64,000 nucleotides of DNA from Geosporobacter ferrireducens. GTDB taxonomy: Bacteria; Bacillota; Clostridia; Peptostreptococcales; Thermotaleaceae. A program made the position numbers and the translations under genes. Shown in pieces: positions 1,830-46,237 of the stretch (positions within the stretch are counted from its first letter, which is position 1; each line of letters opens with the position of its first letter). Under the pieces are notes generated by a model, which had not been told where the DNA came from, searched no databases, and saw only the letters and a list, made by a program, of their open reading frames with translations. The stretch covers positions 248,001 to 312,000 of the forward strand of contig NZ_CP017269.1 in the NCBI RefSeq assembly GCF_001750685.1, given 5' to 3'.

Positions 1830-2849
1830 TTATATTAGCTTTATCGATCCATCAAAGATTACAAAAGACACAATCGATGTTACTAATAATGTCAATACAT
1901 ATCCCTTTTCAAAGATGTTTCCAAGTTTGGTACCTGTACTGATTAGTGGTACCCTAAGCCTAATATTTAAAACCTGGTATAGCAAACTATACAACTTAAA
2001 TTTTCTTAACCGCTTATGCAATCCTATCTTTTCTAAGATTCTTGGCAGCACCGATAGGGGGACCCCTTCCTTGGTAAAAATATCTGTAAAGTATAGATGG
2101 CTGATATACCCAATCATAAAGGCATATCTAAATTCCGGATAGCCTATCCTATTGGTTAAATAAGATACTGCAGCTGTAAAGATTAAAAATCCTTCTATGG
2201 AATGAAAAAAGCTTCTGTGGGGGAAAATTACGGCAGCAATAAATAAAGCTCCAACCAAATACAAGTATGGATCCTTTCCATGGGACGCGTTATATCCTAT
2301 GATCCATAGTCCTGCACCCCCATAAATTATAATCATCATCATTCTTTTTAGTAACGCGCTTCCTCTATTTATTCCTGTAGTAATACTGGTGTAGATATTT
2401 CCTATCAGTGGCAACTTTGTGAGTACTCGTGTTCCCTTTCTTCCGCATACCCCTAATATCAAAAAGAATGCTGCAGCTCCATAGGTAATTCCCTCGGCAT
2501 AGGGCTTTATATTATTAAAATACCAAAGCATTTTAATAATATCCCCTCGAAAAAACAAAATACCTGCCCCGATCCCAAGGGTAAATATTATAGATAATAG
2601 TTTTTTTAGTATGTCTTCCCCTGTATCCACTAATTTATTGGCGCTTCCTACTACGGGATTCATTTGATTAATCTTACTATGTTGACTGTCCACATCTGCC
2701 ATCAACGCTGCTGCCCCGGCGATACACGCAGCGGCTATATTGATCTCTCCTCTCCCTCCTCCGATCACTGGTAAATTTGCTATATGTGGCACTGTACTGG
2801 CCAATACGTAGCTTAGTACCCCCACTTGAAAATGGGTTCTTCCCATCAT
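1830..2849 (-). CDS. YdjM/DUF457-family membrane-bound metal-dependent hydrolase-like protein
   Basis: Integral membrane protein of 339 residues. Seen: the family's N-terminal GRTHFQVG with its conserved His, an ADVDSQHSKI acidic/His stretch near residue 55, an FPHRSFFHS motif near residue 210, and GYISHLYFTDIFTKEGV near residue 245, with about seven hydrophobic segments. These His/Asp residues are the presumed metal ligands of the YdjM family; true substrates are poorly known. The start has GGAGAGG upstream. It is the last gene before a terminator, 17 bp after the HD-GYP gene, so it is cargo co-transcribed with the DNA-processing genes. Confidence 0.82.
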   Translation of the reverse strand: MMGRTHFQVGVLSYVLASTVPHIANLPVIGGGRGEINIAAACIAGAAALMADVDSQHSKINQMNPVVGSANKLVDTGEDILKKLLSIIFTLGIGAGILFFRGDIIKMLWYFNNIKPYAEGITYGAAAFFLILGVCGRKGTRVLTKLPLIGNIYTSITTGINRGSALLKRMMMIIIYGGAGLWIIGYNASHGKDPYLYLVGALFIAAVIFPHRSFFHSIEGFLIFTAAVSYLTNRIGYPEFRYAFMIGYISHLYFTDIFTKEGVPLSVLPRILEKIGLHKRLRKFKLYSLLYQVLNIRLRVPLISTGTKLGNIFEKGYVLTLLVTSIVSFVIFDGSIKLI

Positions 2850-2866: not shown

Positions 2867-3460
2867 CTAATTGAGACTTAGGTTTCTATCATACTCCGGC
2901 TTTAAATTTTTGCAATCAACAATCCTTAAGAAAGCTTCAAAGACTCGCCGATCGTATTTGTAAGATTCATTACTCATAATCTTTATCACCTCGTCAGTAC
3001 CATAAGCACGTCTGTAGTCTCTATTGGAGCTTAATGCATCAAATATATCTGAAACAACGATAATTTTCGATATCAATGGAATTTGTTTATCCGTTAATCC
3101 ATAATACCCACTACCATCTATCTTTTCATGATGATAAAGGATCATTTCACCATGCCTGCGTAGCTTCTTGTGCATTTTGGCTATTTGACTACTATAGAGA
3201 GCATGCAGCTTCATCTCTTCGTATTCATCCGCAGTCAGTTTTCCGGGCTTTCTAAGTATTTCTTTTTTGACCCATGCTTTCCCGTAGTCATGGATGCGGC
3301 TTGCAATGACTACATCCCTCTTTTCTATGTCACTTAGCTTTAGTTCCACCGCAACCCTATAAGCAATATTTCCTACCCGATGACCATGAGCTATAACATC
3401 TTTTGGAATAATCGTCTCCATCATTTGTGATATTTTAATTGCACCTTGTCTATCAATCAT
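2867..3460 (-). CDS. HD-GYP/HDIG-type metal-dependent phosphohydrolase
   Basis: A 197-residue single-domain protein of the HD-GYP superfamily, which usually degrades cyclic di-GMP. Seen in order: HGHRVGNIAYRVA, the metal-binding HD pair in SRIHDYGKAW, the KPGKLTADEYEEMKLH segment, the HHEKIDGSGYYGL loop and the SDIFDALSSNRDYR helix. The signature GYP reads GYY, so phosphodiesterase activity is plausible but not assured. No sensor or receiver domain is attached. It follows the Topo VI-A-like gene by 30 bp, with a GAGGAGGAGA ribosome-binding site. It may tune c-di-GMP, which often controls pili, or be a generic nucleotide phosphohydrolase. Confidence 0.83.
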   Translation of the reverse strand: MIDRQGAIKISQMMETIIPKDVIAHGHRVGNIAYRVAVELKLSDIEKRDVVIASRIHDYGKAWVKKEILRKPGKLTADEYEEMKLHALYSSQIAKMHKKLRRHGEMILYHHEKIDGSGYYGLTDKQIPLISKIIVVSDIFDALSSNRDYRRAYGTDEVIKIMSNESYKYDRRVFEAFLRIVDCKNLKPEYDRNLSLN

Positions 3461-3490: not shown

Positions 3491-4627
3491 TTAAACTATA
3501 GATTCAAATATTTTCATGTTTTTCTGGATTAGCATCTTTATTTGCAATGCAGTCTTTTGGTTAACCACATCCCGCCAGCTTTCGCCCTCCTGGATGCCGT
3601 CTTTTACCTCTATATTTTCATGAGTCTTATTCTGATCAATCAGCTGCTTTGAAATATTTCTAACCAACTCGTCAAGCTCCAATCTCTTTATAATTTCATT
3701 TCTTACTTCTTCCTGAAGCTTTGTTTCTAACACCTTTTCTTTTTCCTTCTCGATTACTTCCACCGGTGGAAGAATCTTTTCTGTAAGCCCTAAATTCTTC
3801 AGTTTCATCTCAATATATGCAATAAGGTCATCTGGTCGAAAGGCGTTGAGCTCACATCGACTTCCTTTTAATACGCCGTTATATAAATTCGCACTTTTCC
3901 CAAGAAAAAAGCGCCTTTCAAGCCTTGAAAGACGACTCACAAATTCAGTTGGCGGAGTATACCGGATATTTACTTTTTCTATCTGCAGCTCTGCCTTTTT
4001 CACATCCTCTACACTTAAGCCAATATCTATGACCCTAATCTTATGCTTGCTGGTCCTAGTTTCATCGGCCAGGGTTCTACTAATTTCATGACCACTAATG
4101 TCGCAATCGTGCAAACATAAAATAGTCATATCCTCAAATTCCCTCTCAAAATCCGCCAAGAGTTCTTTTGCCGATCTATTGGCAAAGCCCTGGCTAGACA
4201 TTAGCGCCATATCATATTTTTCAGCCAGTTTTCCTGCTTGAAGCATTGGTAGTAACCCTGTCTTTTCAACATAGAGTATCTTATTAAATGTATAAGGTTC
4301 CGGTTTATAGGCTGCCACTTCTCTTGTTCCTAACGGAATCTCTCTTCCGGTGTGGGGCTCTATCAGAATTCCTCTAGCTTCATAGTAAAGGCCATCGATG
4401 GTTCCATATTGTTCTTGATACTCCGTAAGCAGTGGCGGGGTAAAATATTCGTAGCTTAATTCCTTGTTTGTATACATTTGGATGAGCGGTCTTACCTGGT
4501 AGTATAAACCTCTGGCACTAAAGGGATATTTTCCTCCACCACTAGCTCGAATAATTGCTTCCGGCATCACTGAAAATACAATTTTTTTCATCGTCGCAAT
4601 CTCATGATCATTCTTTTTCCATGTCAT
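3491..4627 (-). CDS. Stand-alone topoisomerase VI subunit A / Spo11-like protein (winged helix + TOPRIM)
   Basis: A 378-residue protein. Seen: an N-terminal segment with SARGLYYQVRP whose tandem Tyr42-Tyr43 matches the catalytic tyrosine of Topo VI-A/Spo11, and a TOPRIM domain with Glu121 (ILYVEKTG), a SSQGFANRSAKELL stretch, and Asp174-x-Asp176 (LCLHDCDISGHEI). Glu and Asp-x-Asp are the Mg-binding residues. The C-terminal 100 residues are charged and coiled-coil-like. Known family: Topo VI-A makes a tyrosine-linked double-strand break with subunit B; B-less relatives occur in bacterial mobile elements. No subunit B is present here. It lies about 140 bp downstream of the FtsK ATPase. Inference: it processes element DNA. 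Confidence 0.8.
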   Translation of the reverse strand: MTWKKNDHEIATMKKIVFSVMPEAIIRASGGGKYPFSARGLYYQVRPLIQMYTNKELSYEYFTPPLLTEYQEQYGTIDGLYYEARGILIEPHTGREIPLGTREVAAYKPEPYTFNKILYVEKTGLLPMLQAGKLAEKYDMALMSSQGFANRSAKELLADFEREFEDMTILCLHDCDISGHEISRTLADETRTSKHKIRVIDIGLSVEDVKKAELQIEKVNIRYTPPTEFVSRLSRLERRFFLGKSANLYNGVLKGSRCELNAFRPDDLIAYIEMKLKNLGLTEKILPPVEVIEKEKEKVLETKLQEEVRNEIIKRLELDELVRNISKQLIDQNKTHENIEVKDGIQEGESWRDVVNQKTALQIKMLIQKNMKIFESIV

Positions 4628-4767
4628 ATTTTCACCCCCGGATTCAGGTTCCCTTTTTTGTTCTCTCCCACCCCCTCAACCCTTAGTAAAATTAAGGGAG
4701 ATCTTCGAATAATACATCCCTATAATACAACCAATAATACAAGCTATAATACAACCTAAGTATACCT

Positions 4768-6786
4768 CTAGGAGGCTTCAAATTCGTCACAGAGCCTATA
4801 AAAAGCCTCCTCATCTATAACCCTATACCCTCTACCAGGAACTGACTCTATATGCTTTTCATTTACATACTTATCAAATACACTTTGTATGTCATTCTTG
4901 TTTTTCCGAAGCTTGGTCCTAATCTTATTCGCTGATACAATAATCTCTTTTCCGTCCGGCGTTTTATCAATTTCCTCTAAAATCTGAAGAGCAACCTGGT
5001 ATTCCAAATCACTTTTCTCTCCATGATCCTGATCAAACTCCTCCTCATCTGCTACTTCTTCTGTATCCACTTTTTCATATACATCTTCTGTCTCCCTAGT
5101 CGATTCTTCTGATACAGACTTTACTTTCTTTTTAGAAGCTTTATTATCTTCTTCCTGATTTTCCACGACCAAACTTGGATCAGCTAAAGCAGGATTTATG
5201 AATTCGGGTATTAATTCATTTGAGTTCTCTCTCCAATAACTGGCCAGATCCATAATGCTTTTCTCGACTTCACTATCTTTTATACTAACGGCTGCACCCT
5301 GGAATCTTAGATTTCCCTCCAATCTTCCTTCGATCCGAGCTACTCCGTCTCCAAAACCTCTCAGTTTAAAGTTCAATCCTTTTTCTGCGCCAAAGACCGT
5401 AGAATAATCTGATTGTGTTGTTAGGGAAAAACATATTCTGGTTGGAAGATTTCCCTTTAGCACTCCAGTGATAACATCTACTGAAGGCCTTTGAGTTGCG
5501 ATAACTAGATGTATTCCTGCTGCTCTGGCCAACTGCCCAAGTCTAACAAACAATGGTTCTAATACATCTTTTCCTCCTACCATCATTAAGTCATAATACT
5601 CGTCTACCACATCTACAATATACGGTAACCGCTGTTCTTTTGGGACCTTTTCATTGTAAGCTTCAATATTTCTTACCTTCACTTTTTCAAACAGCTTGTA
5701 TCGAAGATCCATCTCCTTTACCAGTTCTTGTTTCATCAAAACCGCTTTTTCAGCATCTTTTTCGATTCTTGCCACATGGGGCAGCGGCTCATAGATATGA
5801 AACTCCACTCGCTTTGGATCTGTTAGCAACAATCTTAATTCATCGGGTCCTGTAAGATAAGAAAGGGTTGAAATTAATGCATTTAACCATACGCTTTTCC
5901 CACTGTTTGTGGCCCCAGCAACCAATGCATGGGGAAACTTCGTTAGATCCGCAAAAACGATGTTTCCTTTCGGATCGATGCCGATGGGGATAGGTAGTAT
6001 CATTTTTCTTCTGGCCAATTTAAACTCTTTTGACTCCAATATACTCCGCAAATATACAGGTACTCTATTTTGACTCCCTACAATAATCCCGGCTCTTCCT
6101 GCTGCAGATCCTTTGATAATTTCTAAAGAAGGTACTCCTAGTGCAGCTTCAAGATCTTTTGCATATCCTTCTATGGTGCTTTGTTTTAATCCATTTGGCA
6201 GATCAATCTCAATTAAGGCACTAGAGGGTCCATCATTAACACTTACCACCTTTATGCCCTGGATCACTTCATCTGCCACACCCATTCTTTTAAAACCTTC
6301 AGGTAAACTCTTTGCAACTACGGCACCATTTTTTTCAAACTCCATCTTCGGTTGAGGTGGAAATATTTCCAAATTAGGTAAGCCCTTTAAGCCTTGGTTT
6401 CCTTTCGGATCTCCTTCATCATCCATCTCAAAATCCATATTTTCATCATTAAGACGTTTCAAGTTCTTTAGACTAAAGGATCCTGAGAGCATGGTCTTAA
6501 CACCTGTAAACATCTCCTTCCATATTTTCCCAATCATGTTGATCAACCACTCAAAAAGCTTTGTACGATTAAGCCATGCAAAGTACCCTGTAATAATCAT
6601 TACAAAGAGACTAAAGCCTACTTTCTGTCCTTCTATAGCGTAGCTTTTTAAATCCGGATAATTCTCGATAAAGCTGGTTCGCATTATAAAAATGGATCCT
6701 CCACCTACCATCAACGATATACAAGCTGTTTTTGCAAAGAAATCCGTGATGCTATCTGTAAATTTTTCTAATTCGTTTTTAGTCAT
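4768..6786 (-). CDS. FtsK/SpoIIIE-type DNA translocase, likely conjugative coupling protein
   Basis: A 672-residue membrane-anchored ATPase that would pump element DNA to the secretion channel. Seen: two hydrophobic segments in the first 75 residues; an FtsK motor with Walker A GATNSGKS at about residue 293, LLLTDPKRVEF, Walker B PYIVDVVDEY, and ATQRPSVDVITGVLKGNLPTRI; an acidic linker (about 535-600); and a C-terminal 75-residue segment that may be a winged helix. TcpA-like proteins of Gram-positive ICEs share this plan; chromosomal FtsK has four TM segments and a longer linker. The ribosome-binding site is AAAGGAGG. It heads the run down to the terminator at 1775. Confidence 0.9.
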   Translation of the reverse strand: MTKNELEKFTDSITDFFAKTACISLMVGGGSIFIMRTSFIENYPDLKSYAIEGQKVGFSLFVMIITGYFAWLNRTKLFEWLINMIGKIWKEMFTGVKTMLSGSFSLKNLKRLNDENMDFEMDDEGDPKGNQGLKGLPNLEIFPPQPKMEFEKNGAVVAKSLPEGFKRMGVADEVIQGIKVVSVNDGPSSALIEIDLPNGLKQSTIEGYAKDLEAALGVPSLEIIKGSAAGRAGIIVGSQNRVPVYLRSILESKEFKLARRKMILPIPIGIDPKGNIVFADLTKFPHALVAGATNSGKSVWLNALISTLSYLTGPDELRLLLTDPKRVEFHIYEPLPHVARIEKDAEKAVLMKQELVKEMDLRYKLFEKVKVRNIEAYNEKVPKEQRLPYIVDVVDEYYDLMMVGGKDVLEPLFVRLGQLARAAGIHLVIATQRPSVDVITGVLKGNLPTRICFSLTTQSDYSTVFGAEKGLNFKLRGFGDGVARIEGRLEGNLRFQGAAVSIKDSEVEKSIMDLASYWRENSNELIPEFINPALADPSLVVENQEEDNKASKKKVKSVSEESTRETEDVYEKVDTEEVADEEEFDQDHGEKSDLEYQVALQILEEIDKTPDGKEIIVSANKIRTKLRKNKNDIQSVFDKYVNEKHIESVPGRGYRVIDEEAFYRLCDEFEAS

Positions 6787-7788: not shown

Positions 7789-8178
7789 CTATAATCCCAT
7801 TTTCTTCTTTGTAAACTCTACTACTCTTACTGCAGCTGCAAGCCCTTCCTTCGCATCATTATTTGTCACTTCTGTTCCTTCATCTGCAGGATACCTGGTT
7901 TCAATATAATAGTTGTTTAGTTCCCTCGCATCCGCCATGGTCTGTGAAAAATCCTTATCCAACCGCTGACATTCTCTACTTAAATATACTAGCGAGTGAC
8001 CTTCTGCTAACTTTTCGACTTTATGTAATAAATATGCCTTCAGCATCTTCTCTACCGCCTGTTGGCTGTGAAAAGCTACTAATTCATTGGCATCACCATG
8101 CTTTAACAGCGTTTGTGCACCTCTTAGGTCTTGCTCTGCTTTTCTTACCCAATCTTCAAATTTTTTACTATCAACCAT
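7789..8178 (-). CDS. HEPN domain protein, partner of an MNT nucleotidyltransferase
   Basis: A 129-residue helical protein. Seen: WVRKAEQDLRGAQTLL, then AFHSQQAVEKMLKAYLL and the YYIETRYPADE motif typical of HEPN proteins that accompany minimal nucleotidyltransferases. The R-x4-6-H ribonuclease motif of toxic HEPN proteins is not obvious. It overlaps the nucleotidyltransferase gene by 8 bp, so the two are translationally coupled. Known: HEPN/MNT pairs act as toxin-antitoxin modules, the MNT member often blocking HEPN by AMPylation. Here it probably stabilises the element, but toxicity is an inference. Confidence 0.88.
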   Translation of the reverse strand: MVDSKKFEDWVRKAEQDLRGAQTLLKHGDANELVAFHSQQAVEKMLKAYLLHKVEKLAEGHSLVYLSRECQRLDKDFSQTMADARELNNYYIETRYPADEGTEVTNNDAKEGLAAAVRVVEFTKKKMGL

Positions 8179-8497
8179 ATATCATCTCACCCTTCTTCTC
8201 TATCAAATTTGCGAAGGATCCTGGTGTCTTGACATGCTTATCCCACTCTTCCGGTGTATAAATTAACAAATCCACCGGCTGATCAAAATCCAGGCCGTCT
8301 TCTGCATAGATATATTCACTCATCACACCATTTAATTTTCTTTTATTATCCGTCTCAATAATCACACACAGATCAATGTCGCTTTTTTCTGTTGCGGTCC
8401 CTGCTGCACAGGATCCAAAGACAACTATAGCTTTTGGATGGAATCTCCTTGCTATTCCTTCTTTAAGATTTTCTATTTCTCTTTTAAAATTACGCAT
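8171..8497 (-). CDS. MNT-type nucleotidyltransferase, antitoxin of a HEPN/MNT pair
   Basis: A 108-residue minimal nucleotidyltransferase. Seen: VVFGSCAAGTATEKSDIDLCVI, which is the GS-x-x-x-G...S-D-(I/L)-D-(L/V) signature binding nucleotide and two Mg ions, and a third acidic strand near FDQPVDLLIY. Family role: AMPylation and neutralisation of the cognate HEPN toxin. The start is preceded by GTAGGGGTGG. It sits 13 bp after the 82-residue gene in one short operon that ends at the terminator at 7752. Confidence 0.9.
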   Translation of the reverse strand: MRNFKREIENLKEGIARRFHPKAIVVFGSCAAGTATEKSDIDLCVIIETDNKRKLNGVMSEYIYAEDGLDFDQPVDLLIYTPEEWDKHVKTPGSFANLIEKKGEMIYG

Positions 8498-19367: not shown

Positions 19368-19420
19368 ATTTTCTTAATCCCCCCTTGAGATTTAATGGTG
19401 TCACAATCCTACACTCCTCT

Positions 19421-19639
19421 TTAAGCAGCTTTAAGACTATCATTTAAAACCTTCTCTGTAAGTTCGTCTATACCCAAATTGTAGTGGTTAGGTACGCTTC
19501 CAGTTTTGAATTCTATGCCGTTAATATCATCCTTTACGTCATCAGCTTTATTTAAGATTGGCGATATAATCAATGCTGCCACTGCTACCACCAATCCAAC
19601 TGTAATAATAAACCATGCTAATTTTTCTGTTGTTGTCAT
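19421..19639 (-). CDS. Small Flp-like pilin, second copy
   Basis: 72 residues beginning MTTTEKLAWFII with Glu at position 5, one hydrophobic helix, then NKADDVKDD and an EFKTGS-xxxHYNL segment. The copy at 19689 differs only in its C-terminal third, indicating recent tandem duplication. Expected to be a major subunit of the tad fibre. It has no long leader before the hydrophobic helix. Ribosome-binding site AAGGAGGAA. Confidence 0.75.
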   Translation of the reverse strand: MTTTEKLAWFIITVGLVVAVAALIISPILNKADDVKDDINGIEFKTGSVPNHYNLGIDELTEKVLNDSLKAA

Positions 19640-19688
19640 TTGTAAATTCCTCCTTGTAATTTAATAAATACTAGTTTTGACAGTCCGT

Positions 19689-19907: not shown

Positions 19908-19930
19908 TTTGTAAATTCCTCCCTTAATTT

Positions 19931-22616: not shown

Positions 22617-23915
22617 CTATAGCGCTACCTTTATTTTTTTCTTTTCAGGATCATAAAGCAGCTGCTCTTTTTCTTCTTCTGTCAAATTGTAATAATCCAT
22701 CCGCATCCGCTGGTCCTCTCCCTTGATCCCTCCAACTCTTTTATGTTCTTTCGTTTTTGGGTCCCAAATAAATAATGGGTTTCGGTAATAGGTTCTGCTC
22801 CTTCTATCAGCGACCAGTTCAGATATATCATCGATAATCCTTCGGCCACCTTCCAGCTGTCGGATTCTGTAGGTAATGGGAAACGCCTTTGCATACCGGT
22901 ACATCAGAAAATCAATGTCCATGGGAATACCATTTTCCAGATGCATCTGAGCAAATTCTTCCGGAAGGGATTCAGGATCAATCACATGAGCTGTAAGAAA
23001 GGTGCATCCAATACCACGCCTTGAGGCCTTTCCCGCTTCATTTATTTCCGCTCCCCTTGCTTCTCCAACAATAATTACATCCCGATTGGTTCTCAGTAAC
23101 CACTTGAAACAAGCTAGTAGATCAAACTGAGAAGATTCCTGAAGACTGATTATGTTTCTGTCCTTTAATAGCTCTTGAAGCTTTACTTCAAAATCCGGCT
23201 CTAGCGTACCAATTTTAAATTTAGGATTCAGAAGACTTACCAGGTACTTTAAGAAAGAAGATTTTCCCCGGTTGATTCCACCAATGATCGCAATAGCTGG
23301 TAGTATTTTAAATAAAATTTTTGTAAAGGATATCATCTCCTCTGTTAGTGCCCCGCTGGATATATAGGATTCTTCAGAAGGGGTAAAGGAGCTAAAAAGC
23401 TTAATAAACAGATAATTTTCATAACAGGAAGGTCTTACTCCTGCGGTAATCCGCTCGCCACTTACCCGCTTGCTTTCCATGAGACTATTTTCTGTATTGA
23501 TATCCGGCTTATTATCGTGCTGGATGGCCCTTCGGATAACCTCCTCGAACTCTTTTTCATCCTCAAAGGAAAGATCTAGCCGTTCCCATAATCCATTGCT
23601 TTTTTCTACTTCAATCCAGTCATAGCCAATACATTCAATATTGTTATATTGCTTCTTCCGGTTGGCTACCAGATCATGAATGACCGATAGTCCATACTCT
23701 TTTTTATAGATCTCATAGCTTAGGGTCTCAAGCCGTTCTCCTTCCATCCCATATTTTGCTAGTATTTCCCTGATGGCTCTGATCATATAATCTTCAGCCT
23801 GTTGATCCCCACTGCAGCAGCGAAAAATCATTTCTGAATGTTCTTCTCCCTCATACTCATCCAGCTCTTTTCGTACAATTTTCCTATAGCTTTTCAATTC
23901 ATCCTGCAAGTCCAT
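22617..23915 (-). CDS. TadA/CpaF-type secretion ATPase
   Basis: A 432-residue VirB11/PulE-superfamily ATPase that powers pilus assembly. Seen: Walker A GGINRGKSSF at about residue 215, an Asp/Glu box around ISLQESSQFDL, Walker B DVIIVGEARGAE, and a His box FLTAHVIDPESLPEEFAQM, all diagnostic of CpaF/TadA. The C-terminal ending YDLTE-like and KKKI tail are unremarkable. The gene sits 3 bp after the CpaB-like gene, in the order TadZ-CpaB-TadA-TadB typical of tad loci. Confidence 0.9.
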   Translation of the reverse strand: MDLQDELKSYRKIVRKELDEYEGEEHSEMIFRCCSGDQQAEDYMIRAIREILAKYGMEGERLETLSYEIYKKEYGLSVIHDLVANRKKQYNNIECIGYDWIEVEKSNGLWERLDLSFEDEKEFEEVIRRAIQHDNKPDINTENSLMESKRVSGERITAGVRPSCYENYLFIKLFSSFTPSEESYISSGALTEEMISFTKILFKILPAIAIIGGINRGKSSFLKYLVSLLNPKFKIGTLEPDFEVKLQELLKDRNIISLQESSQFDLLACFKWLLRTNRDVIIVGEARGAEINEAGKASRRGIGCTFLTAHVIDPESLPEEFAQMHLENGIPMDIDFLMYRYAKAFPITYRIRQLEGGRRIIDDISELVADRRSRTYYRNPLFIWDPKTKEHKRVGGIKGEDQRMRMDYYNLTEEEKEQLLYDPEKKKIKVAL

Positions 23916-23918
23916 TTT

Positions 23919-24659
23919 CTATTCACCATCCTTACGCTTGCCACTAATAATGACTTTGTCTGTATTCTCTGTAGATGGATCTTCGTCTACCTTTATTACA
24001 TTCCCATGCCTTTTTAAGTACAGCTTTCCTTTCTTCTTCACCTGATCTACTGCTGCATCCATCTCATTATCTAGTTTTACTAACACAGTTATAGGCTTGA
24101 AGGCGTTTTTATCCTTAGCATTCTGATGGGCTATATTGCTTTCATCAAATACATTTTTCAGTTCTACACCGGCGACAATCATCTCTGGTGCTGTCGGCAC
24201 GCCTCCGGTCTCTTCCAGACTTAGGGAAAGCATTACATCTACCACATCTCCAGGCTTTGCAGTTCCCCCTACCAAATCGGTGAATTTTTCAAAGGTAATG
24301 CCCACCTCCTTCTCCTCCGGCCTAAACCATTGTTCCTTCGTAGTTATTTCTGAAGCAGTAATTTCCTTGTCTGCGATTAGATCTGTTAGGGCTACCTTCC
24401 CAATGATTTCTGACATTTTGCTATAGCTTCCCTTATGCTTATACTTTTCATCGATTACTTTCTCTTTTAGGTGGGTGCCGGTTATTTCATCTCCTTTACT
24501 AATTTTTTGACTGGCTACGATTACCGTTGTCTGTTTGGGTATTTCTATACCCGCCAGCCTCGTTTGATAGTAGGTGATTGTCCCTCCCAAAAGCAATATA
24601 AAAAACGCTGTTAAAAGCGTCTTTGAAATGTTGTTGGCTATATTTTTGATTAACTTCAT
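23919..24659 (-). CDS. CpaB/RcpC-type pilus assembly protein with SAF domain
   Basis: 246 residues: an N-terminal membrane anchor (about 14-34), then the SAF domain (TTVIVASQKISKGDEITGTHLKEK ... IGKVALTDLIADKEIT), then an RcpC-like domain (GDVVDVMLSLS, ITVLVKLDNEMDAAV). CpaB proteins are periplasmic or wall-side parts of the Tad machine, proposed to bind wall polymers. It overlaps TadZ by 4 bp. Confidence 0.85.
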   Translation of the reverse strand: MKLIKNIANNISKTLLTAFFILLLGGTITYYQTRLAGIEIPKQTTVIVASQKISKGDEITGTHLKEKVIDEKYKHKGSYSKMSEIIGKVALTDLIADKEITASEITTKEQWFRPEEKEVGITFEKFTDLVGGTAKPGDVVDVMLSLSLEETGGVPTAPEMIVAGVELKNVFDESNIAHQNAKDKNAFKPITVLVKLDNEMDAAVDQVKKKGKLYLKRHGNVIKVDEDPSTENTDKVIISGKRKDGE

Positions 24660-26254
24660 TCCCTAACTCCTTTCCCTAAGCTAAAAATACTCCTGATTTT
24701 AATCCCTGCAAACCCTTTGGGCTGTCGCGCTTTCTTTTTCATGCCAAAACAAAAGGCTGCCAGCTCCTCAAAAGCTTCTTTTGTTGCCTCCTCACACTCT
24801 CCCCTGGCAACAGCTGACTGGCCATATCGAATATTCTTCACAGCCATTACAGGGTCCATGGGAACCGTCAGTTTTCCTGCAAAAGGGCCGCCTAGGAAGG
24901 ATGCAACCTTGTCTATATCAAACTCTTTGTTTTCAACATATTGATTTAATACCAGAATCATTTTTTCTGTCGGTACATTCATTTTGGTCAATTGCTTTAA
25001 AGCCGCCTTGTTTTCATCCATCATTCGGTAATCAAGGTTTTGTACCAGCAAAACCGTATCCGCCATCATTAGGATGTCCTTTACTAAGCCATCTTCTTCG
25101 ATGGCTCCTGTATCCACAAATACAACATCTCTTTCTCTCCTTAGCTGATCGATTAATGAGAGTAATCTTGCCTTATTCCTTTCAATCGGGATGGGATAAA
25201 ATTCATCATCATATTTTCGGCAAGTAAAGGTGATGAGTAATCCATCCAGAAAATCCTGGCCATACTCGTAGATATCGCCTAAAGCATCCTCCTCCAGGAT
25301 GGCTTTTAATCCTTCCCGCTTTTTTTCATCACGGATAAAACAATAATAGTATAGAGACCTGTTTTTAAGGTCTCCATCTACCAGTGCGGTTTTAATGTTT
25401 CTGCGGGCTACCGTATGGGCAAGATTATTCATGACATAGCTCTTCCCTGTAGGGGCTGCCGAGAAGACCGCTACAATTCTTTTTAAACCCTTATTAATTT
25501 TATAGATATATTCATCCTTTAAATCGTCAGGCGTTTCTTCCTTTTCCTTCTCTTTCTCCAGTTCTTTAAGCTTCTTTTCTGCTAGGGCACTTTGCTTTTC
25601 CAGCTCCTTTCTTAAGCGCATCTCCTCCGCAAGCTTCTTCCTGATTTTTTCGATCTCAGCGCGCTCTCTTTGCGGCTTTTCAGAAGACTGCTGTGGAGAT
25701 TGCTTATCCTTTCCTTGAAAGGCTTCCCGGAGCTTTGCAAGCTTACTGCCCAGTTTTTTAGGCCCTTTATTTTTTTCTCCTTCCTCCTCTTGTTTCTCTG
25801 GAGGATCTGATTGGATGGGAATGTGCCCATTTTCTTTTTCTTCTTCCAAGGCTGCATCCATATTGGCTATTTCCTCTACCATGATCTGAAGCCTTTCAAT
25901 GATCTGAAGAATTTGATCTTTTTCTGCATCCTGTTCTAGAAATTCTACTCCCAGCCGTTCCATCTCACCATAGAGCAGCTGGTTTAATCTTTCCGTATCA
26001 AAAGTCAGGATCCTATATTTCACCGGTATCTTTCGGATTAACTCCAACCAGCTTAATTCCCCTTCTAGCGCGGTTTCCGTCACTACAATGGACCACCCTG
26101 TGCCCTCTTTTACATACGCTAGAATCTCTTCCCTACTTTGAATCTGGCCTTTTATATCTATAATCGATATCTCTTGAATCTTTTGCAGCAGCTCTGTGTT
26201 TTTTAATCCCAGCAGAACAGCTATTTTTTTACCTTCTCCGCCTATTTGTTCCAA
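24656..26254 (-). CDS. TadZ/CpaE-like ParA-family ATPase, TTG start
   Basis: 532 residues. The N-terminal 125 residues look like a degenerate receiver domain; a highly charged coiled-coil linker follows (about 140-265); the last 260 residues are a MinD/ParA ATPase with AAPTGKSYVMNNLA, DGDLKNRS and VVFVDTGAI. The deviant Walker motif lacks the usual first lysine (KGG-x-GK(T/S)). CpaE/TadZ proteins place the pilus machine in the cell. The frame opens with a TTG behind GGAGGAAGAGG. It is the first gene of the tad operon. Confidence 0.82.
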   Translation of the reverse strand: MEQIGGEGKKIAVLLGLKNTELLQKIQEISIIDIKGQIQSREEILAYVKEGTGWSIVVTETALEGELSWLELIRKIPVKYRILTFDTERLNQLLYGEMERLGVEFLEQDAEKDQILQIIERLQIMVEEIANMDAALEEEKENGHIPIQSDPPEKQEEEGEKNKGPKKLGSKLAKLREAFQGKDKQSPQQSSEKPQRERAEIEKIRKKLAEEMRLRKELEKQSALAEKKLKELEKEKEKEETPDDLKDEYIYKINKGLKRIVAVFSAAPTGKSYVMNNLAHTVARRNIKTALVDGDLKNRSLYYYCFIRDEKKREGLKAILEEDALGDIYEYGQDFLDGLLITFTCRKYDDEFYPIPIERNKARLLSLIDQLRRERDVVFVDTGAIEEDGLVKDILMMADTVLLVQNLDYRMMDENKAALKQLTKMNVPTEKMILVLNQYVENKEFDIDKVASFLGGPFAGKLTVPMDPVMAVKNIRYGQSAVARGECEEATKEAFEELAAFCFGMKKKARQPKGFAGIKIRSIFSLGKGVRE

Positions 26255-29992: not shown

Positions 29993-31816
29993 CTAGGCCA
30001 ATCCTCTGGTTTTACTAAGCTGTCTAAACTCGCTGTCCGGAAGCTTTAGGCGCAGGATGTCATACAGATCTCCGCGACTACTCTTCTCCCGGTAGATAAA
30101 GGAATATTTCGGTAAATTCAACCAAGCCTCAATCACTTCCCGGGGCATGTCCGCATTCCCGGCCAGCTTCTCAATCTTATCCCGCTCCAAGGCAAAGAAG
30201 AATTTGTATTTAGTATTGTCCCAGATTCCCTGTCCGCCTTCTGTATTAAATAAAATGGAAGGATCGTTAAAACCCATCAGTACCATATCATTAAATTTCC
30301 TTCCAGTTGTTACAGAGCGGTATAGGGGCGGCCAGGCGTATTGTTTACGGATCAGCCGCTGCAGCTCATCGTATACTTCCGCGGAGTAATGCTGCTTTTT
30401 GATTCGGTCTCTTTTAATCTGCTGCCAGGATAGGCCGGTGGCCATAACAATCTTAATCGCTCCAATGCTTTGATCAAATTCATTTTCTACGGAGCTGGCC
30501 ACATGGTAGACAACTAATTTTTTGTTTCTGATCCAATCAGAGTCTTGGGCCTGGGCAAACAGGTCACTGTTTGGACCTTCAAAAAAGGACCAGATATCCT
30601 CCGCCAGCTCCGCTGCCCCATCCTTAAAAGGGATGCTGCTGTCAGTGGATTTTGCATTTTTCTTAATCCGTTCATACAGGGGATGTAGGCCTACATCCGG
30701 ATCTCTTTTGTTCCAGGTCCTAGGATCCTTTTTTCGGATGCCCGCATCTCCCCACATTTTCATTAATGCGTATTCTAAGGCATTTCTCTTTTTGACCGTG
30801 AGATTCTCGCTCAAAAGACTGAAGGTTGCCCGGGTGTTTACGGTAGCTTCGTTATATCTGGCCATGTCAGCCTCCCTAGCTACCTCCTGTGAAGCTTTAT
30901 CCAGCATGCCTAGCTCCATTTCTTCTTCTATGGCGCGCTCAATGATGGTAGGATCTACATATTTACCGCTCCCCTCTGTAAGGTCTACCCACTCTCCTTT
31001 AACCTTTTTACATAGAGCCCGATACTCACCGTCTACATCATAGACATAAAGTTTAAAACCCTCTTCCAGCAGCCCTTCGCTATGACCTTTTATCGCCGTC
31101 GATTTTCCCTCTCCCGACAAGCCTACAAAAATTTGATTCTGATTGTCTTCTCCTCTTTTGTAATCCTTATACACCATCGAATTATCGTAAATCCTATGTC
31201 CTATGTAGGTCCCGAAGGCGTCGGAGATGGATCCGTCCAACATAGGGTAAACGGCCCCTACTGCATTTAAGTCCAATATTCTGCCCGGATGTCTTTTAAA
31301 GAGTTCATCTCCCCCTGCAATCCATGCAGCATCCAATCCGCTGTGCTGTTCGTTTGTCAGATCATCTAGGATAAATCCTTTAAATTCAAAATCATCCTTG
31401 AATTTTCTGACGCTTTCTTTAAATGCCTTTTGATTATTGCTGGCGATGGTGACGGTAACCCAAAAGTCTGCATATCTTCCTTTACTGGTACCATCACGAA
31501 AGTAGAGCAAAGCATTTAATGCCTTTTCTTCTTCTTCTCTTCCCTTATCACTGAGATTTTTGGTCTTATAGGCTTCTAAGTTTCTCTGGATACGATCCAT
31601 TTTCCATTTCATCTTCTGGTCAAACTTTACTTCTGCCGGCTTAAAGTGCTCTCCACAAATCACACTCACACCTGGAATGACATGCTCTCCATGGGTAATG
31701 CTATACATGAGGTTAGCCGTAACCGACTGGGGAAAATCCTTAATGAGAAAAGTCTTCACAAAGGAATCGTTGATTTCAAGATGCTTTGGTTTTACTTTTA
31801 CAGTGTTTTTGATCAT
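29993..31816 (-). CDS. VirB4-family T4SS ATPase
   Basis: 607-residue ATPase that energises assembly of the conjugation channel. Seen: Walker A GLSGEGKST at about residue 235, the following YVYDVDGEY strand, Walker B region KLVVYHVASS, and the family's YDELQRLIR and ATGLSW segments. It overlaps the PrgI-like gene by 4 bp (ATGA), a usual arrangement in Gram-positive ICEs. VirB4 is among the best markers of conjugative elements, so this fixes the element's type. Confidence 0.93.
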   Translation of the reverse strand: MIKNTVKVKPKHLEINDSFVKTFLIKDFPQSVTANLMYSITHGEHVIPGVSVICGEHFKPAEVKFDQKMKWKMDRIQRNLEAYKTKNLSDKGREEEEKALNALLYFRDGTSKGRYADFWVTVTIASNNQKAFKESVRKFKDDFEFKGFILDDLTNEQHSGLDAAWIAGGDELFKRHPGRILDLNAVGAVYPMLDGSISDAFGTYIGHRIYDNSMVYKDYKRGEDNQNQIFVGLSGEGKSTAIKGHSEGLLEEGFKLYVYDVDGEYRALCKKVKGEWVDLTEGSGKYVDPTIIERAIEEEMELGMLDKASQEVAREADMARYNEATVNTRATFSLLSENLTVKKRNALEYALMKMWGDAGIRKKDPRTWNKRDPDVGLHPLYERIKKNAKSTDSSIPFKDGAAELAEDIWSFFEGPNSDLFAQAQDSDWIRNKKLVVYHVASSVENEFDQSIGAIKIVMATGLSWQQIKRDRIKKQHYSAEVYDELQRLIRKQYAWPPLYRSVTTGRKFNDMVLMGFNDPSILFNTEGGQGIWDNTKYKFFFALERDKIEKLAGNADMPREVIEAWLNLPKYSFIYREKSSRGDLYDILRLKLPDSEFRQLSKTRGLA

Positions 31817-32704: not shown

Positions 32705-34306
32705 CTATACCGGTAACGGACCCATGTAAGCCCCTTCCTCCGGTGGCTGTTTATCCTTTACTAAACGGCCCAGTTCTTTATCTAAATAATAAAAATCTCC
32801 TTCAGGAGAATCATAGTACCGGTCTTTTTGTTCATAGCTTTTTATGATGTCTCCTACCTGGGTACTGTAATCTTCATCAAAAATAAGCCCTTTCTGATGC
32901 TCCAGTTGAACCTTTTCTACCGAAACCTCCGGCAGGGCCTTTAAGATGTCCTGGTAGATATTTTCCAGATCCCGCTCATTCCTAAAGGCATATTGCAGCA
33001 GATTTTCTTTTGCTACCTGATCCTTCCCGTAGGCTTGTCCTTTTGAAATCTGTTTTAGATTCATTTCAGTTTGTGACACCTCCTGCAGCAGTTCTTCGAT
33101 TTTGCTCTTTCTGGATGCCAACAGGTGCTCTGTATCCTCAAAACCACCGGAATGTTTACTGGCCTCTGTACTCTCCTGTTGGGAAGAAGTCTCCCCTTGA
33201 TTTAAGCCCATCCGGTTTCTAATAGACTCTCCGGCTTTATCCAGATGCTCTCCAATGGTTTTTAATCCCTTCATAAAGGCTTTGCCTCCTAAAGTTACAG
33301 GATCCTTCACAGCCTGTATGAGCCAACGAAACCATATCCATATGGCTAAAGCGATTCCTACCGTAAAGAGAATACAGGCAATAATTTGGGGAATAATTCT
33401 GGCAAAATCCTCACTTTCTGCAGCATATACCGAAAACAGCCAAGCAAGGGTGGTAATCAGTGTAATCATTACAGAGCGGACATACAGATTCAAAAGCCCG
33501 ACGGCCGGTTCCATATTGCCAGTATAGGCACATCCAGCAATCCACAAGCAACACAAGCCACCCAGTCCCCCGACGACAAAATAACGAATAATCCCAAACA
33601 CCCCGGTCAGCCCCATGACACCCATGGCCCAGAGCATAACAAAAAGACCTCCGCCTCCGTTTTCCGTGAAGGTTTTATAAAAGGGTTCGTTTTTGCTCAG
33701 GTCTGCCCCAAAGGCGATCTTCATCAAGCCTACTCCCGTAAAGCTGCTAAAGCCTATGTCTCCTCCGGTATTTTCCTGTGTCAGTATACTGCTCTCTGCC
33801 TTCTCATACTTTTCTTCCAAAGTAGGCTGTGCAATAGATGAAAAGGCCATATTGCTCATTTCAATAATCCAATCCCCGCTATATAAAGATAGGGATGCAG
33901 CAATAAAGCTGATTAAAAAAGCACTGAATATTCTTTTGTGGCCTTCTGATCCGGTAATTACCTTCAAAAGCGAATATCCCCCGCCGATGACAATCAGAAT
34001 AATGGCCGGCATATAGGTTAGCCACCAAAGGCTTACAATCCACTTATATCCTATTAGCTTAGGGGTTTGAAAAACCCACTGGTTCATCAGACCGGAAGTA
34101 GCATTCAATACATCTTCCAAAGCTTCTCCGTTGGTTTTTTCCAGGGCCTTTGTAAACCAGCTCTTCTCTTGTGGATTTTCTTGCGGGTTTTCTTGTAGGT
34201 TCTCATCCCTCGGCCCTGTATCCCCGTAAGCAACAGTAGTAAGAAAGATTACTAACAGCACTGCAAGAATTATTCGAGCTCTAATTTTGTTTTTAAAAAA
34301 TATCAC
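32705..34306 (-). CDS. VirB6/TrbL-like polytopic T4SS protein, GTG start
   Basis: 533 residues: signal sequence (to about residue 29), about seven hydrophobic helices between 85 and 350, then a long charged cytoplasmic tail with coiled coil (SRKSKIEELLQEVSQTEMNL). VirB6 proteins form the inner-membrane part of the channel. The GTG is preceded by AAAGGAGG. Nineteen bp separate it from the M23 gene. Confidence 0.75.
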   Translation of the reverse strand: MIFFKNKIRARIILAVLLVIFLTTVAYGDTGPRDENLQENPQENPQEKSWFTKALEKTNGEALEDVLNATSGLMNQWVFQTPKLIGYKWIVSLWWLTYMPAIILIVIGGGYSLLKVITGSEGHKRIFSAFLISFIAASLSLYSGDWIIEMSNMAFSSIAQPTLEEKYEKAESSILTQENTGGDIGFSSFTGVGLMKIAFGADLSKNEPFYKTFTENGGGGLFVMLWAMGVMGLTGVFGIIRYFVVGGLGGLCCLWIAGCAYTGNMEPAVGLLNLYVRSVMITLITTLAWLFSVYAAESEDFARIIPQIIACILFTVGIALAIWIWFRWLIQAVKDPVTLGGKAFMKGLKTIGEHLDKAGESIRNRMGLNQGETSSQQESTEASKHSGGFEDTEHLLASRKSKIEELLQEVSQTEMNLKQISKGQAYGKDQVAKENLLQYAFRNERDLENIYQDILKALPEVSVEKVQLEHQKGLIFDEDYSTQVGDIIKSYEQKDRYYDSPEGDFYYLDKELGRLVKDKQPPEEGAYMGPLPV

Positions 34307-34325: not shown

Positions 34326-35936
34326 CTAGTTTATTAGCGGCTGAGGATCTATGGCCTTTCCCTGATACCGGATCTCAAAATGCAAATGGGGTCCTGTACT
34401 TCTTCCTGTAGAGCCCACCGCAGCAACCACCTGTCCGGTTTTTACCATATCTCCCTTCTTTACATAGAATTTATTCAGATGGGCATAGTAGGTCTCAAAA
34501 TCTTGATATCCCTCTTCTGTATGTTGAATAATCAACAGATTGCCGTAGCTTCCCATCCCTCCCGCATAGATAACTTTTCCGGCAGCTGCACCATGCACCG
34601 GCGTGTTCATAGGTGCACCGATATCGATTCCGTTATGAAACCTTCTATCTTTTAAGGTCGGGTGAATTCTATAGCCAAATTTTGAAGTAATGGGATATTT
34701 GCTACCCAGAGGTCTTAGAAACCGGCCTGGTGGAATAACCAGCTCGCCTAAATCAATATCCTCGCCTGGACTAGGATAGATGGTATCGGGCTGAATGTTC
34801 ATAGCTTCGGCCAAGAGTTCTAAAAATGGTTTATTATTGGGTATTACCTGGGCCAATTCATAGATTAAATAAGGATCTGCATCGGTATCTAACCGGTTAT
34901 TTGACAAAAAAGAAAAAAAGTTGTAGTTATCCGTTGTTGTTAAAACATCTAACACATCCTTTTCCACTTTCCTTCTTGTTTCCATCCAGGTAGTACTGGT
35001 ATAATGATCCGTTACCGTTCTTGAAGTTTTGTATTTTTTCCCATCCTTACCTGTACGGGTGGTAGTCACCACACGGGTCTGGGTCCAGGATCTTTTTTCC
35101 GGATATGGCTGACTTTTTATCCAACCGGTATCCTCCTGCACCTCCCGCTTATATTTAAAGGCGTAATCCTTAAACATAGTGGAAATATGGTTTGGATAAG
35201 GCAGCGGATAGGAGTATCTGTAATCTGTCTGTTCATCTGTATTTTCTACCATAACACCGTTGCAGGTGACAATCCTTCTGAGATAGGTAGATTCCCAGAT
35301 AGTCTCCTCATATTGAAAACTGTCATCATCAATCTTATAATAGGTCTCTCCTTTTTCTAAATCCTGATCTACAGTATATTTAAAGCTCCAGTCAAACACA
35401 GTTTCCAGGCCATCCTGATCTACTTTTTTTTCAGCCTGTTTTAATAGTGCAGTATCCTTTTCCTTGTCCGATGTCTCATTGATCACATCAACACCTACCA
35501 GTGCCTGCTTAAATAACCGGTAGGGATAGGTTTCATTCCACAGATTCAGCGTATATTCATACCGATCCGGCTTTGATGATGTATCCAGCCATTCATGATG
35601 CTGCCCTTCTGATACCTTCTTCCAAACCTTTCTTTTGATGACAGCATCCTGGGGAATACTTTTATTTTCAAGTAAAGCATATGCAGCGACCTTCTTCGGG
35701 TGCACGCTGATCCCCTGTTCTTCTAATTGATCTGCCTGGAGGTCTTCTACTTCCTTACTCCACGCTATCTGTTCCTGATTTGTACTTCCCGCTATAGAAA
35801 AGAGTTCCTCTACTGCCAGAATTGGCATGGCATTAAGAATATTTCCCGTGAATATGATCGCAATAATTATGATGAAAATAACGGGTACTATCCACATTAG
35901 CGATCTATTTTTATCCCTCAAAGCATTTACCCCCAC
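34326..35936 (-). CDS. M23 metallopeptidase, T4SS cell-wall hydrolase
   Basis: 536 residues. One N-terminal TM helix (about 14-32), a long exported middle region, and a C-terminal lysostaphin-type peptidase with FHNGIDIGAP (about residue 436; His and Asp ligands), YYAHLNKF and GPHLHFEIR (about 517). M23 enzymes cut peptide cross-links and open the wall for the conjugation channel, in place of the VirB1 transglycosylase. GTG start overlaps the upstream gene by 10 bp; a TTG five codons later behind GGGGGT is an alternative. Confidence 0.88.
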   Translation of the reverse strand: MGVNALRDKNRSLMWIVPVIFIIIIAIIFTGNILNAMPILAVEELFSIAGSTNQEQIAWSKEVEDLQADQLEEQGISVHPKKVAAYALLENKSIPQDAVIKRKVWKKVSEGQHHEWLDTSSKPDRYEYTLNLWNETYPYRLFKQALVGVDVINETSDKEKDTALLKQAEKKVDQDGLETVFDWSFKYTVDQDLEKGETYYKIDDDSFQYEETIWESTYLRRIVTCNGVMVENTDEQTDYRYSYPLPYPNHISTMFKDYAFKYKREVQEDTGWIKSQPYPEKRSWTQTRVVTTTRTGKDGKKYKTSRTVTDHYTSTTWMETRRKVEKDVLDVLTTTDNYNFFSFLSNNRLDTDADPYLIYELAQVIPNNKPFLELLAEAMNIQPDTIYPSPGEDIDLGELVIPPGRFLRPLGSKYPITSKFGYRIHPTLKDRRFHNGIDIGAPMNTPVHGAAAGKVIYAGGMGSYGNLLIIQHTEEGYQDFETYYAHLNKFYVKKGDMVKTGQVVAAVGSTGRSTGPHLHFEIRYQGKAIDPQPLIN

Positions 35937-44560: not shown

Positions 44561-46237
44561 ATGGCTACAGCAGGTATTTATGTACGAAAGTCCAAAGCTA
44601 CCGATAAAGGTGAATCTATAGAGAATCAAACAAAACGTGGGATATCCCTCTGTGAAATGCGTGGATGGGACTACATAATCTACGAAGACTATGACTTCTC
44701 TGGAAAGACTTTGGACAGACCAGATTTTGAAAGAATGATGAAAGACGCTAAGAATAGAAATATTGATTATATTATTTGTTACAAGCTAGATAGGATCTCT
44801 AGAAGCGTAAATGACTTTTCCTCCCTAGTTGAAGAATTAGACAGCCTCGGTGTAGGTTTTATTTGCATTAAAGATAACTTTGATACTACAAGTCCAATGG
44901 GTAGAGCTATGATGTATATTACCGCAGTATTTGCCCAACTAGAGCGTGAAACAATTGCCGAACGTGTTAGAGATAATATGATTGATCGAGCTAAAATGGG
45001 CAAATGGAATGGTGGGCCTGTTCCCTTTGGCTTCGACGTACAGAGAGATACCATTGTCACTAATGGGCGTAATAAGAAAACTTCAGCACTTACCATTAAT
45101 GTAGAAGAAGCTAAACTAGTTAAATTGTTTTATGAATGGTATATCCAAGATGAAGGGTCTATTCGCAGCAATACTTTCAGAGCAAATGATCCTATCAATG
45201 GATATAAAACAAAACATGGAGCTCTATGGAGTGATAATCAAATGTCGCGACTGCTACAAAATCCTATATATTGTATAGCCGATCAAGAGGCATATGAATA
45301 TTTTTCTACTCAAACTAAGGTTCAGATAATCAATCGTAGAGAAGATTTTGATGGTAGCCACGGCTTAATGTTTTATAATCGCAGAAAGCCGCACAAGAAA
45401 ACCTCCAGGGAGAGGGATGAAGAAGAATGGATTTTAGTAATTGGTGATCACCAAGGTATTATTCCCGGGGAAATGTATAAAAAGCTACAAAATAAGCTAC
45501 ATATCAACAAAATAAAAGCGCCTAGACATGGTCAGGGTCTTTCTTCCCCGCTTACTGGTTTAGTAAGATGTGGCAGATGTGGTGCAGCTATGTCAGTTTT
45601 CACTTCCAGAAAATCTAAGGATAAATCACAAGGGTTCTGGGCTTACTTCAGATGTATCTGCAGAGAACAAAAATCAAAATTATTATGTGATAATACAAAC
45701 GTAAGAGCTGATCTTCTGGAACAAATAGTAGTTGGACATATTAGCGGTCTGTGTAATAACAAAAACTTTATTACAGAGCTTCTAGAGGGCTCAAACGATG
45801 AGTTAGAGAACAATCGTATACCGCTTATTGCTAAAAGAAATAAATTACAATTAGAATTAGATGTTAATGATAAAGAAATGAAAAACCTAGTTATTGCGCT
45901 TGGTAAAGGTATTCTTCCTGAAATAGTTATTCAAAGCCGCTATAAGGAATTAGAAGATCAAAAAAAAGCATTAAAAAAACAACTTCAAGAAGTTGCCCTC
46001 GAATTAGAAAACAATTATTCTGAAACCTATAATATTGATATGGTAATGAAATACATAAATACTTTTAATGAGACCTATGAATATCTTACGATTGAAGAAA
46101 AGAAAAAACTGCTTAAGCAAATTGTTAAGGAAGTAAAAGTAGATAAGGATAAAGTTGAACTAACACTTTATTTTCTTCCCACTCAAGAGTTTAATGATTT
46201 ATCACTTTGCTCATACAAGGACAAGGATTCATACTAG
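44561..46237 (+). CDS. Large serine recombinase (integrase of the element)
   Basis: 558 residues. Resolvase domain with the catalytic Ser11 (IYVRKSK), [13 protein letters not shown] and [10 protein letters not shown]; the Recombinase linker with LLQNPIYC; a zinc ribbon ([13 protein letters not shown] ... CDNTNV); then a coiled-coil end. These enzymes integrate elements at short att sites by 2-bp crossover. The last seven residues (YKDKDSY) and the stop are read from comM sequence, so the C-terminus changes on excision. Strong AAAAGGAGG site. Confidence 0.95.

What the first reader, a model, noticed from the sequence alone, without database searches (positions are those of the whole stretch)
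3491..6786. B-less Topo VI-A/Spo11-like protein beside the coupling ATPase, with no relaxase in view
The 378-aa protein keeps the tandem YY (Tyr42-Tyr43) and the TOPRIM acids (Glu121, Asp174, Asp176), so it could form a covalent tyrosine-DNA bond. It follows the FtsK-like gene, and none of the other visible proteins shows relaxase motifs. Known: subunit-B-less Topo VI-A relatives exist in bacterial mobile elements (the so-called Mini-A type, from memory), of unknown use. Inference: it may start or process DNA for transfer in place of a relaxase.
Basis: partly seen in the sequence, partly recalled or inferred. Interest (0 to 1): 0.85.

Follow-up and report, generated by a model that had tools for sequence, protein, structure and literature searches.

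The report
Orphan topoisomerase VIII cutter beside FtsK
A mobile DNA element in a bacterium carries the DNA-cutting half of a rare topoisomerase (type VIII) without its energy-supplying half, next to its DNA-pumping motor; this is an unusual solo form, but sister elements that also lack the usual transfer-starting enzyme do not have it, so it is probably an accessory part rather than the missing starter.

Summary
Window 3491-4627(-) encodes an intact 378-aa Topo VI-A/Spo11-type protein (Tyr42-Tyr43, Glu121, Asp174, Asp176). The model (pLDDT 82) matches Topo VI-A (Z 16.8), Spo11 and JetD/MksG. It follows ftsK in a 95.3-kb element inserted in comM. I read the whole element. It has no recognisable HUH, Rep_trans or Mob_Pre relaxase and no GHKL B subunit, and the host genome has no topo VIII B.

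Two parts of the interpretation change. First, the protein is not Mini-A. A tree puts it with topo VIII (100/100), and about 20 relatives sampled are fused B-A proteins; one more reads as two frames. A solo topo VIII-A is therefore rare. Second, eight sister transfer modules lack it; three (G029, G057, G842) have FtsK with no topo-A behind it. Four Paenibacillus replicons with this module lack both it and the relaxase families tested. The transfer system is thus relaxase-poor without it.

Most likely it is an accessory Tyr-dependent DNA cleaver captured by the transfer operon. A conserved tyrosine recombinase (TcpM-type candidate) or TraB-like double-strand transfer by FtsK are better general candidates for starting transfer. 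No function has been shown.

The parts
3491..4627 (-). topA-like gene: stand-alone topoisomerase VIII A subunit (Topo VI-A/Spo11 superfamily), 378 aa
4499..4504 (-). codons of Tyr42-Tyr43 (RGLYYQV motif; Tyr43 is the expected catalytic residue)
   Evidence: Tyr43 invariant, Tyr42 at least 90% in 44 sequences; catalytic assignment from knowledge of Topo VI-A/Spo11
4265..4267 (-). codon of TOPRIM Glu121
   Evidence: invariant
4100..4108 (-). codons of TOPRIM Asp174-x-Asp176
   Evidence: invariant
4768..6786 (-). FtsK/SpoIIIE-type membrane-anchored ATPase, presumed coupling/DNA motor; C-terminal region looks like a winged helix (by eye)
   Evidence: PF01580 E 4.5e-50; homologous in 7 sister modules
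4708..4756 (.). 12-bp tandem repeat, 4 copies, in the 140-bp ftsK-topA gap; possible protein-binding site (operator or cis transfer site, unresolved)
2867..3460 (-). HD-GYP/HD_5 protein, follows topA by 30 bp; in sister elements follows ftsK directly
   Evidence: PF13487 7.8e-25
1830..2849 (-). YdjM-type membrane protein, last gene of the FtsK-topA-HD-GYP-YdjM run
   Evidence: PF04307 1.2e-13
29993..31816 (-). VirB4-like ATPase
   Evidence: PF19044 1.8e-5; 54-26% identical homologues in sister elements
32705..34306 (-). VirB6-like polytopic membrane protein (assignment by position and hydrophobicity)
   Evidence: homologues in sister elements; no Pfam hit
34326..35936 (-). M23 peptidase, presumed cell-wall hydrolase of the transfer system
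   Evidence: PF01551 2.8e-34
22617..23915 (-). TadA/VirB11-type secretion ATPase
   Evidence: PF00437 1.1e-8
23919..24659 (-). CpaB/RcpC-like pilus assembly protein
   Evidence: PF08666 2.9e-6, PF16976 1.8e-5
24656..26254 (-). CpaE-like ParA-type ATPase
   Evidence: weak PF13614; homologues in G043 and G029
44561..46237 (+). large serine recombinase, presumed integrase of the element
   Evidence: PF00239 6.8e-40, PF07508, PF13408
46219..46227 (.). 9-bp core GGACAAGGA at the element's right end (left copy in L002:10949 = C1:198949); right boundary of the 95.3-kb element
   Evidence: joining the flanks restores comM

Best explanation
The gene encodes the DNA-cleaving A subunit of the topoisomerase VIII lineage, living without its GHKL ATPase partner. 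It was captured by one member of a family of relaxase-poor transfer elements (FtsK motor, VirB4, M23 hydrolase, Tad-like pilus genes) and sits in the operon-like run ftsK-topA-HD-GYP-ydjM. Shown by computation: the fold, the catalytic residues, the topo VIII ancestry, the absence of a B subunit in the genome, the absence of recognisable relaxases in the element, and the absence of the gene from sister elements. Inferred: it forms a dimer and uses Tyr43 to make 5'-tyrosyl-linked, mostly double-strand cleavages in DNA, as Topo VI-A, Spo11 and topo VIII do, and does so without ATP-driven strand passage. Also inferred: it serves the element as an accessory DNA-processing or unlinking enzyme at or near the FtsK motor, and is not the general starter of transfer in this family.
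For: Fold and residues: (nearest solved folds Topo VI-A, Spo11, then JetD and MksG, which act without a GHKL B subunit; the last point is from general knowledge and abstracts). Ancestry: topo VIII side of the tree at 100/100; 32-38% identity to topo VIII A regions; its own branch is short (0.52), suggesting constraint rather than decay. Solo state: relatives sampled are fused frames of about 685-966 aa, apart from one with a split frame, one partial and two cut at a record end; no B in own genome with working controls. Accessory: topo-A absent from G029, G043, G057, pAP1, pY5S7-2, P. bovis, P. cellulosilyticus and from the closest VirB4 relative's contig, G842; relaxase families absent from the four Paenibacillus records.
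Against: No activity has been shown. Topo VIII enzymes tested so far had weak activity (PMC7614492, PMC8185306). Topo VI-A normally needs B for efficient cleavage, so a solo A could be inactive or could need an unknown partner. Nothing shows that it meets FtsK or element DNA. Only one example of the solo form was found, so no conservation argument for the pairing is possible.
Confidence: 0.5

Rival explanations
1. One reading: the protein starts transfer in place of a relaxase, cutting the element (probably both strands) and staying bound through Tyr43, then handing the DNA to FtsK.
For: Intact catalytic residues, position directly behind ftsK and a 12-bp repeat array, no HUH/Rep_trans/Mob_Pre relaxase in the whole element.
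Against: Sister elements with the same transfer module lack topA as well as these relaxase families, so another starter must exist in the family. Topo VI-A type enzymes make double-strand breaks, not strand-specific nicks.
Confidence: 0.13
2. Transfer is started by something else and topA is unrelated to it. Candidates are the family-conserved tyrosine recombinase (TcpM/MOBM-like relaxase) or TraB-like double-stranded transfer by FtsK from clustered short repeats. TopA would then be cargo, for example a nuclease against competing DNA as in Wadjet JetD/MksG.
For: A ~310-aa tyrosine recombinase is shared by the own element (L003:13609-14541), G057, pAP1 and pY5S7-2, and a weaker match lies on the G842 contig. 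TcpM of pCW3 is a tyrosine-recombinase relaxase working with an FtsK-like TcpA, and TraB moves dsDNA via 8-bp clt repeats (PMC12857230). Inverted arrays of TGGTTCCC-like repeats lie directly behind ftsK in G029, G057, pAP1 and P. cellulosilyticus. The element carries defence genes.
Against: The tyrosine recombinase could be an ordinary Xer-type resolvase; in pY5S7-2 the array lies near Agr genes, so the repeats may be operators; topA sits inside the transfer run, not in the defence part.
Confidence: 0.27
3. An active topoisomerase in which the A subunit borrows another ATPase (a divergent GHKL protein or the FtsK motor) to relax or unlink the element's DNA.
For: Close relation to fused ATP-dependent topo VIII.
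Against: No topo VIII B in the genome; no conserved partner gene.
Confidence: 0.05
4. A recent leftover of a truncated fused topo VIII, expressed but without function.
For: Unique among relatives in lacking the B half; absent from sister elements.
Against: Frame intact, all catalytic and fold-defining positions kept, short branch, own start close to the A-domain boundary, no B relic visible in the 140-bp gap.
Confidence: 0.05

Closest known systems
Topoisomerase VIII (e.g. Paenibacillus polymyxa pPPM1a, WP_014600290.1)
   Same: A region about 35% identical, same Tyr/TOPRIM motifs, carried by plasmids and integrated elements
   Different: Known relatives sampled here are fused GHKL-B plus A proteins of about 685-966 aa; this one is the A part alone and no B exists in the genome
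Mini-A (e.g. Pseudomonas phage NP1)
   Same: Stand-alone Topo VI-A relative without B, in a mobile element; shares the invariant catalytic residues
   Different: About 20% identical, separate clade with 100/100 support, about 300 aa; not the family of this protein
Spo11 and Wadjet JetD / MksG nuclease
   Same: Same fold (Z 11.4-12.3); JetD and MksG are known to work without a GHKL B subunit
   Different: Not linked to SMC (Jet/Mks) genes; keeps the Tyr and TOPRIM set of topoisomerases
TcpA/TcpM system of pCW3 and TraB/clt of Streptomyces
   Same: FtsK-like coupling motor; TcpM is a tyrosine-recombinase relaxase and TraB needs no relaxase
   Different: No TcpM identity test was made; this family adds VirB4, M23 and Tad-like pilus genes, and one member adds topo VIII-A
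pXO16 (tip locus) of Bacillus thuringiensis
   Same: Conjugative plasmid with T4SS-like ATPases in which no relaxase or oriT has been identified (PMC9673590)
   Different: Not among the plasmid records hit by this element's VirB4 or topA

Membership tests
Type IIB topoisomerase A subunit superfamily (Topo VI-A/Spo11) | TOPRIM domain with Glu and Asp-x-Asp | tested here: met
   Pfam PF21180 above cut-off, PDB profile hits, invariant residues, Z 14.3-16.8 to Topo VI-A
Type IIB topoisomerase A subunit superfamily (Topo VI-A/Spo11) | 5Y-CAP domain with catalytic tyrosine | tested here: met
   Invariant Arg39/Tyr43; model residues 4-98 form three helices and two strands as in a winged helix; Foldseek alignments to Topo VI-A span 304-328 columns, more than TOPRIM alone. 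The CAP part was not superposed on its own
Topoisomerase VIII | A domain of topo VIII type | tested here: met
   Groups with topo VIII at 100/100, apart from Mini-A; 32-38% identity
Topoisomerase VIII | GHKL B domain, fused or encoded separately | tested here: not met
   Open frame of 394 aa only; no B in the genome, with controls ringing
Topoisomerase VIII | DNA cleavage or relaxation activity | not testable with these tools
   needs purified protein
Mini-A | Groups with phage/archaeal-virus Mini-A in sequence trees | tested here: not met
   Ten Mini-A form a separate clade, 100/100; no tblastn hit in 50,697 phage records
Mini-A | No B subunit | tested here: met
Conjugative relaxase (HUH, Rep_trans, Mob_Pre) | Relaxase domain in the element | tested here: not met
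   Pfam scans of 39 element proteins and PF03432, PF02486, PF01076 genome searches; divergent families such as MOBM not excluded
MOBM relaxase (TcpM type) | Tyrosine-recombinase-like protein with relaxase function, conserved in the transfer element | tested here: inconclusive
   A conserved tyrosine recombinase exists; no comparison with TcpM made
Integrated conjugative-type element | Defined ends, integrase, coupling ATPase and VirB4 | tested here: met
   comM halves and 9-bp core, serine recombinase, FtsK, VirB4; actual transfer not shown

The most novel reading that the evidence does not exclude
In this element a solo topo VIII-A acts like a bacterial Spo11: it cuts element DNA near the repeats behind ftsK, stays bound to the 5' ends, and feeds a double-stranded, protein-capped end to the FtsK motor, giving relaxase-free conjugation by a topoisomerase-derived starter.
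Probability: 0.1. Interest if true: 0.88.

Novelty: new variant of a known kind. Interest (0 to 1): 0.5.

Why it matters
Topo VIII and Mini-A have no known biological role. A natural solo topo VIII-A inside a defined transfer operon gives a genetically simple place to ask what the A subunit does without its ATPase, and whether Spo11-like cutting can arise from a topoisomerase in bacteria. The wider result may matter more: a family of plasmids and integrated elements in Bacillota has a conserved VirB4, FtsK, M23 and Tad-like module but no recognised relaxase, which makes the open question of how such elements (pXO16 is another case) start DNA transfer directly testable.

Tried and rejected
Mini-A membership: rejected by tree and searches. 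A canonical relaxase left of the window: rejected by reading the whole element to its left end. An HUH motif scan of all six frames gave only shadow frames and a chance match in an 827-aa protein. A separate B subunit in the genome: none. A first structure prediction with 9 sequences was poor (pLDDT 59.5) and was replaced by one with 44. The viral structure library gave no match under E 0.001. A single-protein scan of genome and viral collections found nothing; alignment A1 was too diverse to scan. The idea that the 392-aa gene behind ftsK in P. bovis is a diverged topA: rejected, no profile hit. The idea that TGGTTCCC arrays behind ftsK in sister elements are clt-like transfer sites: left open, because they may be operators; the own element has a different repeat and no such array. 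pXO16 itself was not fetched; it is only known not to be among the records hit.

Full report
What is there. Window 3491-4627 (-) holds an intact 378-aa gene directly behind ftsK (4768-6786) and before an HD-GYP gene (2867-3460) and a YdjM-type membrane protein gene (1830-2849), all on one strand. The gaps are 140 bp (ftsK-topA) and 30 bp (topA-HD-GYP). No terminator-like site was found on the coding strand in the ftsK-topA gap; two hairpins lie inside topA.

Whole element. The window is C1:248001-312000 of a 5.8-Mb genome. The comM gene is split: its N-terminal part is at window 46191-47276 and its C-terminal part at L002:10471-10968. Both junctions carry GGACAAGGA, and joining the flanks there restores a complete ComM reading frame. 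The element is therefore about 95.3 kb (C1:198949-294219), with a large serine recombinase at its right end. The only PF03432 protein of the genome is at C1:712401, outside the element. Large repetitive proteins (Rhs-like, subtilase) and transposases were not scanned.

Fold. Pfam and PDB profile searches place the protein with Topo VI-A. A model built on 44 sequences has pLDDT 81.8 and pTM 0.73. Its four Foldseek matches under E 0.001 are Topo VI-A chains. The TOPRIM half aligns to Topo VI-A at Z 14.3-16.8, Spo11 at 11.8-12.3, JetD at 11.5 and the MksG nuclease at 11.4. Whole-chain rmsd is large (about 16 A), consistent with a different domain arrangement in the model. Arg39, Tyr43, Glu121, Lys122, Asp174, Asp176 and Gly179 are invariant across topo VIII-A and Mini-A.

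Which family. tblastn against plasmids hits only the A part of large proteins; reading those frames shows GHKL-B plus A fusions, i.e. topo VIII, except two cut by record ends. Further relatives from 84,980 genomes, from 394 genomes of the order and from 398 genomes of the phylum have open frames of 685-945 aa, apart from one with 536 aa (L036) and one whose N part reads as a separate 225-aa frame (G738). A further 391 genomes of the class gave none. The window's frame is 394 aa. In a tree with ten phage Mini-A, the protein is on the topo VIII side at 100/100; whether it is sister to all topo VIII or nested among them is not resolved (88/77, two long branches).

Is it the starter of transfer? 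The element's VirB4 led to a family of related modules: plasmids pAP1, pY5S7-2 and that of P. bovis, a P. cellulosilyticus replicon, and contigs of G029, G043, G057 and G842. They share VirB4 and, in most, VirB6-like protein, M23 hydrolase, FtsK and TadA-like ATPase; the Paenibacillus plasmids are also annotated with CpaB and DUF4320 genes. None of the seven tested by profile has a topo-A, nor has the G842 contig. The four Paenibacillus records also lack the three relaxase families, and PLSDB types them as non-mobilizable. In G029 and G057 HD-GYP follows FtsK directly, so topA looks like an insertion at this spot. Whatever starts transfer in this family does not need topA. A tyrosine recombinase is shared by the own element, G057, pAP1 and pY5S7-2; literature gives TcpM as a tyrosine-recombinase relaxase beside an FtsK-like TcpA, and TraB as a relaxase-free dsDNA motor that binds 8-bp clt repeats (PMC12857230). 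These are leads, not tests.

Repeats. Behind ftsK, four relatives carry facing arrays of TGGTTCCC-like units with 12-14 bp spacing. In the own element the same spot holds a different 12-bp repeat, four copies at 4708-4756, next to topA. In pY5S7-2 the array lies elsewhere, near Agr quorum-sensing genes, so an operator is as likely as a transfer site.

Mechanism. Best supported: a Tyr43-dependent, ATP-uncoupled DNA cleaver from the topo VIII lineage, expressed with the transfer operon and accessory to it. Shown: fold, residues, ancestry, solo state, context, absence in sisters. Inferred: dimerisation, double-strand cleavage, 5'-tyrosyl link, work near FtsK. The relaxase-substitute reading remains possible for this one element (0.13).

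Known background. [quoted passage not shown]). The original description (lqz021) was not available. Relaxase-less conjugation is already reported for pXO16 (PMC9673590).

Noticed in passing
L003:13609-14541 (C1:221609-222541): Tyrosine recombinase, 310 aa, conserved in sister elements G057, pAP1 and pY5S7-2 and matched on the G842 contig; candidate MOBM-type relaxase or resolvase of the relaxase-poor family.
   Followed up: partly
L014:19650-19830, L017:19180-19320, L023:2540-2660, L029:14315-14415, L015:3120-3270: Facing arrays of TGGTTCCC-like repeats with 12-14 bp spacing, directly behind ftsK in four of the five; operator or clt/oriT-like site.
   Followed up: partly
L003:1183-7548: 2121-aa protein matching Avs3a (PADLOC, E 2.9e-155), an anti-phage STAND ATPase, inside the element.
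   Followed up: no
L004:16246-19590 and L002:14503-17052: HerA-type ATPase next to a 448-aa protein without Pfam hit (NurA-like by position), and a NERD+UvrD helicase (PADLOC C3a187): further candidate defence genes.
   Followed up: no
L004:1886-2209, L004:14994-15269 and L004:15322-15609: Duplicated small gene and a truncated second copy of the YdjM gene flank about 13 kb (Rhs-like, subtilase-like and IS genes), as if the conserved dam-small gene-YdjM run had been duplicated and split by an insertion.
   Followed up: no
window 7789-8497: HEPN plus nucleotidyltransferase (MNT) gene pair, a toxin-antitoxin-like module with homologues in three sister elements.
   Followed up: no
window 19420-19930: Tandem duplication, period 268 bp, 1.9 copies, 92% matching, next to the Tad-like genes.
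   Followed up: no
Viral contigs: At least 597 IMG/VR stretches encode phage Mini-A relatives of the NP1 protein, so Mini-A is a common phage family and very distinct from topo VIII-A.
   Followed up: partly
G738:C2:518468-520656: A second topo VIII of one genome whose N part lies in a separate 225-aa frame, a split or broken gene.
   Followed up: no
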